DNA from: Bacteroidia bacterium
GTDB taxonomy: Bacteria; Bacteroidota; Bacteroidia; B-17B0; Aurantibacillaceae
DNA length: 64,000 bases
Assembly (NCBI GenBank): GCA_016787705.1
Contig: JAEUTP010000010.1
Coordinates: 1 to 64,000 of the forward strand
Direction: 5' to 3'
The position numbers and the translations under genes are program-made. Positions 7,525 to 43,991 of the stretch are shown here, one piece after another (position 1 is the first letter of the stretch; each line of letters begins with the position of its first letter). The notes under the pieces are model-generated. The model ran no database searches. It saw nothing but the letters and a program-made list of their open reading frames with translations, and was not told the DNA's origin.

Positions 7525-7986
7525 ATGAAAACTATTTTATTTATACTGTCGGGCATTTTTAGTTTTAGTGCCTTTGCACAGGATACTTTATATACTACAA
7601 AAGGAAAAATAATTACCGGCAAAGTAATAGAGGTAAACACACAAGAAATTAAATATAAAAGAGCAGCTAACCCTGACGGGCCTTTATATATAGTAGATAA
7701 AACAGAAATTGTTCTTATTCATTACAAAAATGGTTCAAAAGATGTTTTTGAAAGTTCAGAAACTGTAAATTCTAGCAACTCTCAAACCAATTCAAACGAT
7801 AATAAAGTTGTTGTAGATCAAAGACCACGTATAGATGTGGTTGTAGGCTCGCCATATGTTTTATGGGGAGCGCTTGGTTGGGGTTGGGGCTGGCACAGAC
7901 CATTTTATAACCGTGCTTACTGCGGTGGAAATTATTGGCTCGGCGGGCATCACCATCATTACGGGCACTTCGGACGCCATCATTAG
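7525..7986 (+). CDS. Secreted protein with His-rich tail, paralogue 1
   Basis: A 153-residue exported protein. A signal peptide ends at AFAQ (residue ~19). Then comes an ~65-residue beta-rich module (DTLYTTKGKIITGKVIEVN...VLIHYKNGSKDVFES) of a kind often seen in Bacteroidota secreted proteins. A Ser/Asn linker leads to a Trp/Gly- and His-rich C-terminus (GWGWGWHRPFYNR, GGHHHHYGHFGRHH). The tail could bind metal or cell wall, which is inference. The next gene, 33 bp downstream, is a paralogue with the same N-terminal module and a different tail. No named function. Confidence 0.65.
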   Translation: MKTILFILSGIFSFSAFAQDTLYTTKGKIITGKVIEVNTQEIKYKRAANPDGPLYIVDKTEIVLIHYKNGSKDVFESSETVNSSNSQTNSNDNKVVVDQRPRIDVVVGSPYVLWGALGWGWGWHRPFYNRAYCGGNYWLGGHHHHYGHFGRHH

Positions 7987-8019: not shown

Positions 8020-8529
8020 ATGAAAACACTCTACCTAGCTATTCTTTTTATAATAATTAGTATTTCAGGCTTTGCCCAGGATACACTTTTTACAAGAGAA
8101 GGTAAAATAATTAATTGCAAAGTTATAGAGGTTCGTTCGGTTGAAGTAAAATATAAAAGTAGAACCGATGCCGGAAAACAATTTTCACAGATAGCAACAT
8201 CGGATCTTTCTTCCATTCATTATCAAAACGGCACTTATGATGTTTTTGAAACTTTAGCAGATTCTTCGTCTTTCAGAACAACCGTTATTGATGGAACAAG
8301 TATCCCAAATCAACCTGTTGAAAAAACATTTGATAGCCAGGCAAAAGCCAATGAGTATGCTAAAAAAGTCGCAAGGCAGGAAGCTGTTGCCGATGCCGTT
8401 TTTGTTGGCATAAGAGTAGTTGGTTTTATATTACGCGTTGCTCTTGAAATAGCTACTGCCGGTAGCTGCCATAGCGGTGGTCACAACTATCACGGCAACT
8501 ACGGAACCAACCATCCAAGAGGGCATTAA
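8020..8529 (+). CDS. Secreted protein with His-rich tail, paralogue 2
   Basis: A 169-residue exported protein that repeats the architecture of the preceding gene: signal peptide ending at GFAQ, then the module DTLFTREGKIINCKVIEV...IHYQNGTYDVFE. After a linker comes a hydrophobic segment (ADAVFVGIRVVGFILRVALEIA) that could span a membrane. The last ~20 residues are Gly/His/Asn-rich (CHSGGHNYHGNYG). Shared order and spacing with the upstream gene indicate a tandem duplication followed by tail divergence. A terminator follows. Function unknown. Confidence 0.65.
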   Translation: MKTLYLAILFIIISISGFAQDTLFTREGKIINCKVIEVRSVEVKYKSRTDAGKQFSQIATSDLSSIHYQNGTYDVFETLADSSSFRTTVIDGTSIPNQPVEKTFDSQAKANEYAKKVARQEAVADAVFVGIRVVGFILRVALEIATAGSCHSGGHNYHGNYGTNHPRGH

Positions 8530-35771: not shown

Positions 35772-36271
35772 TTTACTTTTCCTTGATCGAAAAGTAAACA
35801 AAAGACAAGGCAAAACGATCCTTCTGCCCGCTCTTGAACTTTCTTGAAAGACAAATAAAGTAAAAAATTCTGTTCCCGTTTTTCACACTGGAATGAACAG
35901 AATTTTAAACGATCCCGATAGCTATCGGGACCTTTATTGTCTTTCTACGAAAGTTCAATTCACCCACACACACGCTCAGCGTTTTGCCCTCCAGCCAACA
36001 ACAGCAAGTCACTTAACAACCAACCATACGAAGCTCAAAGCGAAAACCCAAACATCTGTATACCAAACGCGCAAGCACACATAGTTTGGCGGCCTATTAA
36101 AATTTTTTGTTAAAAAAATCTTTGTTTTTCAAAAGTGTTGGGCCTGTGCGAAGTTGATTTTCGCCTCTCGCGAAGCGCTTAAATCATCAGCTTGAAAGAC
36201 AAAGATTTTTAGAAAAATTTTAAGAAGCCTTGAATTTTTTGCTTACTTTTTTGTTCAATCAAAAAAGTAAG
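35772..36271. repeat. ~500-bp non-coding dispersed element bounded by hairpins
   Basis: This fills a 610-bp stretch without a convincing gene. Its left end is a perfect 10-bp hairpin (TTTACTTTTC-N7-GAAAAGTAAA, 35772-35798) and its right end an 11-bp hairpin (CTTACTTTTTT-N8-AAAAAAGTAAG, 36242-36271). Inside are a palindrome at 35913-35930 and the phrases GCCCTCCAGCCAAC and GGGCCTGTGCGAAG, which I recall as recurring in Bacteroidota intergenic sequence. A short ORF inside (35893-36084) looks spurious. Confidence 0.5.
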
Positions 36272-41327: not shown

Positions 41328-41690
41328 GATTTAAACTCCTTCAAGAGTTAAATATTCTTCGCGCTTGTCATTTTAACGAAGGAGAAATCTCGTTTAACAG
41401 ATCCCTCATTCTTCGGAATGACATCAAAAAAAATGGAAGGCAGTATATTAAATACGGGCTTCCGTTTTTTGTTTAAGCTCAATCAAAGGTTAAATATTTT
41501 TGATTCTTTCACGTCAGGCTGAGCGAAGTCGAAGCCCTTCTATTACCCCTTATGCCCTTCGACTCCGCTCAGGGTGACAAAAAAATGGAAGGCAGTATAT
41601 TAAATACGGGCTTCCATTTTTTGTTTAAGCTCAATCAAGAGTTAAATATCCTCCTCCGTCGCTTCGCGACACCTCCTCAAAGAGGAGGAT
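41289..41690. repeat. Mosaic of terminator-like direct repeats and palindromes
   Basis: This fills the 468-bp gap after the PARIS-like operon. Three copies of a hairpin plus tail unit are present at 41289-41355 (diverged), 41428-41497 and 41579-41649. The last two share the hairpin arms TGGAAG/CTTCC(A/G) and the tail TTTAAGCTCAATCAA-GTTAAATAT. Between them are an inverted repeat at 41366-41423 (TGTCATT...AATGACA) and another at 41513-41578 (arms CTGAGCGAAGTCGAAG-type). A third palindrome, TCCTCCTC...GAGGAGGA, is at 41649-41689 and recurs at 43876-43915. No gene is seen in the segment. Confidence 0.65.
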
Positions 41691-41714
41691 ACTGTGTTTG
41701 CTTGCGCGGTATTA

Positions 41715-43730: not shown

Positions 43731-43875
43731 TTTTTAATTGTACTATGGCAATTGTTATTCCTGCGCGTTGTATTTCATCAAACTGTGGAAATACACGCAA
43801 CACATAAAACATTTTTGGAAAGCGCTTCTACACTGTGTAGAGTAATTTGCCCTTTATTTATTTATTTACTTTCTT

Positions 43876-43915
43876 TCCTCCTCCGTTGCTTCGCGCCACC
43901 TCCTAAAGAGGAGGA
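43876..43915. repeat. Palindromic repeat, second copy
   Basis: TCCTCCTC...GAGGAGGA with a GCTTCGCG core, the same unit as 41649-41689. It lies between the OmpA gene and the TonB receptor gene, followed by the G-rich string GGAGAGGGTGCCCGAAGG. The rest of the ~260-bp gap has nothing else. Confidence 0.7.
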
Positions 43916-43991
43916 TACTAACCGCCTAAGCGTAAAGTATCCCTCTCTGGAGAGGGTGCCCGAAGGGCGGGAAAGGAAGCGATCTGAAAAA

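What the first reader, a model, noticed from the sequence alone, without database searches (positions are those of the whole stretch)
35772..36271. ~500-bp non-coding element with hairpins at both ends
The two ends are separate perfect hairpins with related arms (TTTACTTTTC and CTTACTTTTTT). The interior has no convincing gene but contains phrases I recall from many Bacteroidota intergenic regions, and a palindrome. This resembles a non-autonomous mobile element or a retained structured RNA region with no described function.
Basis: partly seen in the sequence, partly recalled or inferred. Interest (0 to 1): 0.55.

Follow-up and report, generated by a model that had tools for sequence, protein, structure and literature searches.

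The report
Mobile repeat with pseudoknotted ends
The 500-base stretch is one copy of a repeated, probably mobile DNA element that carries no gene and is built from two outward-facing folded units, each ending in a conserved pseudoknot that also occurs in many Bacteroidota and in a Fusobacterium relative.

Summary
Window 35772-36271 has a perfect hairpin at each end, folds far better than shuffles (z -7.7), codes for nothing convincing, and is an insertion: the orthologous gap is about 45 nt in one relative (G006) and holds a different hairpin element in the closest one (G025). Near full-length copies (75-76%) exist in two congeneric genomes; half-copies lie at 13 other places of its own genome. 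The element is two outward-facing units. Each is a long stem closed by GGC/GCC plus a pseudoknot: the end hairpin's loop pairs with CTTGAT-like bases beside the stem (57 of 59 distinct ends; permutation maximum 39). G-T versus A-C mismatches show that one strand, reading outward, is the folded one (RNA or ssDNA). The unit occurs in 38 of 198 sampled genomes of the phylum and in many copies on an Ilyobacter (Fusobacteriota) plasmid. In a Filimonas MAG it sits in ~384-bp insertions with 17-bp terminal inverted repeats and 9-bp target duplications (22 of 39; shuffled mean 3.2), so those copies were transposed. No transposase was found, and no target duplication in the window's genus. Not in Rfam; no description found in my paper searches.

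The parts
35773..35811 (-). Left terminal pseudoknot (39 nt): hairpin 35772-35781/35789-35798, loop 35782-35788; loop pairs (one bulged base) with 35804-35809
   Evidence: model R1 37.0 bits, E 1.4e-4 in own genome
35809..35988 (-). Left long stem (half-module A): GGCAAAACG..CGTTTTGCC closing stem with nested helices; recurs at 5 other places of the own genome, joined to other half-modules
35913..35930 (.). Palindrome TCCCGATAGCTATCGGGA; absent from the four aligned copies of other genomes, present in one other A copy of the own genome (L002); dispersed on its own in the genome
35989..36090 (.). Spacer between the two units; variable except a core like GTGTGCTTACGCGG (here 36067-36080, - strand, 2 mismatches; by itself not above chance in the window)
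36091..36229 (+). Right long stem (half-module B): GGCC..GCC closing stem
36227..36270 (+). Right terminal pseudoknot (44 nt): CTTGAA 36229-36234 pairs with loop TTCAAT 36254-36259 (5 of 6 pairs); hairpin 36242-36253/36260-36271
   Evidence: model R1 66.4 bits, E 3.3e-11 in own genome

Best explanation
A non-autonomous, MITE-like mobile element without a gene. It consists of two outward-facing structured units around a short core. Each unit is a long stem closed by GGC/GCC followed by a terminal pseudoknot in which the end-hairpin loop pairs with CTTGAT-like bases beside the stem. SHOWN: repeat, insertion difference at this site, conserved two-unit anatomy, pairing covariation, strand polarity, and transposition with 9-bp target duplications for distant relatives carrying the same unit. 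INFERRED: (1) the window's copy moved in the same way, by a trans-acting DDE-type transposase that is now absent or unrecognised; (2) the folded strand is an RNA rather than ssDNA; (3) the T-run between the two pseudoknot strands lies in the groove of the T/A-rich hairpin stem as U.A-U triples and protects, or is bound at, the outer 3' end of that RNA; (4) half-modules are exchanged between elements by recombination, which gives the mosaic copies.
For: Copies: 13 strong half-copies in the own genome besides the window, joined to different partners; three near full-length A-B copies in G018 (2) and G020 (1). Insertion: flanking genes 87% and 83% identical in G025, whose gap holds another hairpin element; G006's gap is ~45 nt. 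Pseudoknot: 57 of 59 distinct ends pair at the two variable positions, permuted mean 28.8, maximum 39 in 10,000; covariation score 0.254 against 0.061 shuffled, slid controls at most 0.040. Polarity: G-T 19: A-C 0 in the hairpin, 6: 1 in the loop helix; long stems B 70:24 and A 41:9, and 11:33 and 8:17 when the complement is folded, i.e. the same sign. Distribution: 38 of 198 phylum genomes; second motif TGTYTGA..GAGTT in 80 of 189 units in sense, 6 antisense, 1 downstream. 18 outward-facing pairs of ends 350-674 nt long overall. Transposition: 22 of 39 Filimonas copies with 9-bp flanking repeats (<=2 mismatches), shuffled mean 3.2, maximum 9 in 2000. T-run and A-run lengths correlate, Spearman 0.57 over 93 finder hits, a few of them false.
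Against: No transposase tied to the ends: 0 of 3 genomes have PF01609; IS1 genes in G079 and G000 share no terminal repeats; no terminal-repeat pair 1-3 kb apart in the Filimonas list (read by eye). No consistent target duplication in 18 two-ended elements of the own genus and relatives. Filimonas, G079 and Ilyobacter have different outer inverted repeats, so the enzyme need not be the same. No transcript evidence. For half-module C the polarity test is not decisive (complement fold 23 G-T: 4 A-C). The window's own units show no clear TGTYTGA..GAGTT motif. The sequences are related, so counts overstate independent events.
Confidence: 0.62

Rival explanations
1. Single-strand DNA mobility: the end hairpins are substrates of a Y1/HUH transposase (RAYT or IS200/IS605), as for REPINs or palindrome-associated elements; the folded strand is ssDNA.
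For: Separate hairpins at both ends, strand polarity, three Y1_Tnp genes in the own genome.
Against: None of the three Y1_Tnp loci shows these ends; one is flanked by different palindromes. In Filimonas the mobile unit ends in inverted repeats outside the pseudoknot with 9-bp target duplications, which Y1 enzymes do not make (recalled). The two units face outward on opposite strands, not both on one strand.
Confidence: 0.13
2. A host-adopted bidirectional terminator or cis-regulatory RNA: each unit is a strong hairpin followed by a T-rich run reading outward.
For: GCC followed by TTGATTTTTT on the folded strand; 16 of 46 classified genus units lie between convergent genes, 3 between divergent ones.
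Against: In the wider set no gene orientation stands out (22, 17, 11, 8 of 58 classified; 14 of 85 ends fell inside called ORFs and were dropped). The terminator scan found 2 sites against 0.7 expected, none at the right unit. Termination does not need the loop pairing. The site is empty in a relative.
Confidence: 0.12
3. A recombination site system (attC-like or Xer-like) in which the core or hairpins are recombined by a tyrosine recombinase, giving the modular mosaics.
For: Half-modules are shuffled; shared core motif; some genomes have tandem same-strand units ~300-390 nt apart.
Against: Units face opposite ways here; at the loci read the genes between units look like ordinary chromosomal genes; integrase genes were not searched for.
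Confidence: 0.05
4. Unrelated AT-rich hairpins that look alike by chance.
For: The end hairpins are T/A-rich.
Against: z -7.7, near full-length homologous copies, covariation.
Confidence: 0.01

Closest known systems
Bacterial MITEs (miniature inverted-repeat transposable elements)
   Same: Short, gene-free, intergenic, multi-copy; distant relatives of this unit have terminal inverted repeats and 9-bp target duplications.
   Different: The best conserved part is not the terminal repeat but a structured unit with a pseudoknot, shared by elements with different terminal repeats and across two phyla; no parent IS found.
Pneumococcal BOX / RUP / SPRITE repeats (PMC3049150, passages read)
   Same: Modular, strongly folded interspersed repeats, thought to be MITE-like.
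   Different: Other host group, other sequences; the passages seen describe TIRs paired with each other, not two outward-facing units with terminal pseudoknots.
REP / REPIN elements with RAYT transposases (recalled; listings)
   Same: Palindromic extragenic repeats, often in mirrored pairs.
   Different: Far longer; no RAYT with these ends.
ENE-type RNA triple helices of transposons (PMC12501189, start of abstract seen); telomerase-type pseudoknots (recalled)
   Same: A U-run against a U-A stem, predicted at the outer end of a transposon-borne sequence.
   Different: Only inferred here from run lengths; bacterial, and no poly(A) tail is involved.

Membership tests
MITE | Terminal inverted repeats | tested here: inconclusive
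   Met in Filimonas copies (CATTGTTGTCCGACTAA) and seen in G079. In the window only the two pseudoknot ends are inverted relatives of each other; no further inverted repeat was identified by eye.
MITE | Target site duplication | tested here: not met
   No consistent duplication for the window or for 17 other two-ended elements; met for 22 of 39 Filimonas copies. The window copy is therefore called MITE-like, not filed as a MITE.
MITE | No transposase gene of its own, parent IS with the same ends in the host | tested here: inconclusive
   No ORF above 63 aa. No parent found; only PF01797, PF01609 and PF03400 were searched.
MITE | Dispersed copies and empty sites | tested here: met
REP/REPIN-RAYT | RAYT gene flanked by the same palindromes | tested here: not met
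   3 Y1_Tnp loci read, none with these ends
IS200/IS605-type element | No target duplication, hairpins on one strand | tested here: not met
   Relatives duplicate 9 bp; the two units lie on opposite strands
Rfam RNA family | Match to a curated covariance model | tested here: not met
   No match at gathering score in the window or in 11 loci; one weak hit away from the elements at E 0.48 in six loci
Integron cassette array | attC sites of one orientation with cassette genes and IntI | not tested
   Only orientation and nearby ORFs looked at

The most novel reading that the evidence does not exclude
A phylum-crossing class of bacterial mobile elements whose lasting, selected part is a structured RNA (long stem plus a telomerase-like triple-helix pseudoknot at its 3' end) rather than a protein or the terminal repeats: an RNA that is carried by, and perhaps drives, elements with different DNA ends and different transposases.
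Probability: 0.25. Interest if true: 0.85.

Novelty: new variant of a known kind. Interest (0 to 1): 0.6.

Why it matters
It gives a testable anatomy to a repeat that lies between genes in many Bacteroidota and has no entry in Rfam. The pseudoknot is supported by covariation and strand polarity, so there is a concrete RNA (or ssDNA) to probe, and Filimonas-like genomes with dozens of fresh copies make the missing transposase findable. If the fold is RNA, a gene-free bacterial transposon would carry a conserved structured RNA, which is unusual.

Tried and rejected
RAYT/Y1 transposase as partner: three loci read in full, no shared ends. DDE_Tnp_1 (IS4/IS5 type): none in the three genomes tried. 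IS1: present in G079 and G000 (2 of 6 genomes tried), no shared terminal repeats. Autonomous Filimonas element by its terminal repeat: none seen among 73 matches of the 12-mer with up to 1 mismatch; the reversed control also gave 74, so only the 22 exact matches are informative. Target duplications in the own genus and in Ilyobacter: none consistent. Regulatory role by gene orientation: no clear preference. Rfam: nothing. Papers: eight searches listed no description of this unit; the library holds open-licence papers only. The Cardinium MITE paper (PMC9769881, passages) describes a different, IS982-derived element. A suspected 6-bp duplication TAATAT at the window's ends was dropped: it lies in AT-rich flanks and has no counterpart in other copies.

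In some searches the label 'own' wrongly included loci L163-L181, which come from the named genome scan; no count cited here depends on that label. The loop-pairing count used only ends with loops of 6-7 nt starting CT and with CAAGG close by; the other rows of the 456 found, most of them without CAAGG, were left out.

Full report
OBSERVATION. The window stretch has exactly the two hairpins described, no convincing gene, no tRNA and no Rfam match, and folds far beyond shuffles as RNA or DNA (z about -7.7). The fold shows two long stems, one per half, each next to one of the end hairpins, with a ~100-nt spacer.

COPIES. In its own genome (4.5 Mb, 28 contigs) the element has no second full copy, but among the 13 best matches after itself the left half (A) recurs at 5 places and the right half (B) at 8. 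Reading these places shows A and B joined to other half-modules (called C and D here): C-A and B-D pairs and a C-A-D mosaic, besides the A-B of the window. Of 60 genomes searched (own included), 25 have a match at E <= 1e-5. Three near full-length A-B copies (75-76% over query 19-504 or 19-518) lie in G018 (two) and G020 (one); one search aligns them with a fourth, interrupted copy from G006 (70%). Relative to these four the window's copy carries an extra palindrome, TCCCGATAGCTATCGGGA, which is also scattered alone in the genome and sits inside the pseudoknot of other units.

INSERTION. The downstream metal-hydrolase gene was found in 17 of 40 congeneric genomes (own included). In G025 both flanking genes are kept (83 and 87% aa identity) but the gap holds a different ~140-nt hairpin element sharing the spacer motif; in G006 (68 and 80%) the gap is about 45 nt. 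So the window's element was gained here, or lost there, as a unit. Only these two relatives keep both flanking genes among the nine checked.

THE END UNIT. Collecting ends by script showed that the hairpin loop complements bases beside the long stem: CTTGAT/ATCAAG, CTTGAA/TTCAAG, CTTGAC/GTCAAG, CTT(A)GTC/GACAAG, CTT(A)GCC/GGCAAG, CTTGTT/AACAAG. At the two variable positions 57 of 59 distinct ends pair; 10,000 permutations gave mean 28.8 and maximum 39. On a gap-free alignment of 25 ends the two helices score 0.254 for covariation against 0.061 shuffled and at most 0.040 when slid. This is a pseudoknot, or two competing helices; covariation alone cannot tell which. On the strand that reads outward (long stem first, hairpin last) imperfect pairs are G-T, not A-C: 19 to 0 and 6 to 1 in the end unit, 70 to 24 in B (43 distinct copies) and 41 to 9 in A (17 copies); folding the complement instead still gives the same sign. 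For C (17 copies) the result depends on the strand folded. The outward strand is therefore the one under selection, as RNA or ssDNA. The T-run next to the pseudoknot and the A-run in the stem correlate in length (Spearman 0.57, 93 finder hits, of which a handful with T-runs of 1-2 are false or interrupted), as a U.A-U triple helix would need; this is suggestive only, since family members share both.

SPREAD. A degenerate end pattern matched 99 stretches of the GTDB 220 collection; 80 loci were listed, 58 from one Filimonas MAG and 22 from other Bacteroidota including Myroides, Parapedobacter, Fulvivirga and Sunxiuqinia. A covariance model of the end (R1, hairpin only) finds 19 ends in the own genome at E <= 0.01 and matches in 38 of 198 genomes drawn across the phylum at E <= 1e-4 (own included), up to the 32 scored in one. 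Of twenty such places read most keep GGCC..GCC-CTTGAT and the pseudoknot with other stem sequences; the L239 hit has neither an intact GCC-CTTG nor the long stem and may be a stray. A plasmid search hit led to Ilyobacter polytropus pILYOP01 (Fusobacteriota): L280 has two outward-facing ends about 390 nt apart (46.1 and 36.7 bits) and the record has 38 matching pieces, six of them covering nearly the whole element. A further strand-specific motif, TGTYTGA..GAGTT, lies inside the long stem in 80 of 189 collected units (6 antisense, 1 downstream), including all 6 Ilyobacter units; GGCC lies 100-400 nt upstream in 171 of 189 (68 in the mirror span).

MOBILITY. In Filimonas the unit sits inside ~384-bp elements with the inverted repeat CATTGTTGTCCGACTAA. 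Of 39 copies where both repeats were found, 22 have 9-bp direct repeats outside them with at most 2 mismatches, against 3.2 on average and at most 9 in 2000 shuffles; ten are perfect. That is the mark of a DDE-type transposase (recalled). G079 copies end in another inverted repeat, with likely 8-9-bp duplications in two copies. In the own genus and near relatives 18 two-ended elements show no consistent duplication, and copies differ by roughly 10-25%, so movement there is older or the true ends are not recognised. No transposase was linked.

MECHANISM. The most likely reading is a gene-free mobile element moved in trans through short terminal repeats outside the pseudoknots, whose two units are transcribed or otherwise exposed as single strands and folded outward. 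What the fold does (3'-end protection, protein binding, control of copy number) is not shown. Half-module exchange is visible as mosaics; C-A-D in L028 shows A broken and joined to D.

COMPARISON. MITE-like, and in modularity and folding closest to the BOX repeats of pneumococcus (PMC3049150, passages only). It is not a REPIN or IS200-type element on the tests made. The conserved pseudoknot shared by elements with different terminal repeats, in two phyla, is the new feature. No description was found in eight paper searches, which cover open-licence papers only.

Noticed in passing
window 41427-41702 and 43874-43978: Smaller hairpin repeats (CCTCCTCCGTCGCTTCGCG.. / ..AGTATCCCTCT), some with a core like GTGTGCTTACGCGG; the same kind fills the orthologous gap of the studied element in G025.
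   Followed up: partly
window 7559-7634 and 8057-8132: A 76-bp stretch repeated within the window.
   Followed up: no
window 35913-35930; also L031 near 1795, L074 near 1195, L047 near 1003: Palindrome CCCGATAGCTATCGGG (or a relative) is dispersed in the genome and inserted inside the pseudoknot spacer of several units, like a very small mobile repeat nesting in a larger one.
   Followed up: partly
L034 around 1050-1800: A RAYT-like Y1 transposase gene flanked by its own palindromes (CCCTGCCAGGGTT-type), a separate REP system in this genome.
   Followed up: partly
L083-L162 (those from JAFKHH01, Filimonas sp. MAG): A ~384-bp element in dozens of copies with 17-bp inverted repeats and 9-bp target duplications, no parent transposase seen.
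   Followed up: yes
L280 and L281-L310 (NC_014633.1): Ilyobacter polytropus plasmid pILYOP01 carries many copies of the two-unit element in a different phylum, with AT-rich inverted repeats outside.
   Followed up: partly
L237, L238, L246, L249: Tandem same-strand units mostly about 300-390 nt apart in other Bacteroidota genomes.
   Followed up: no
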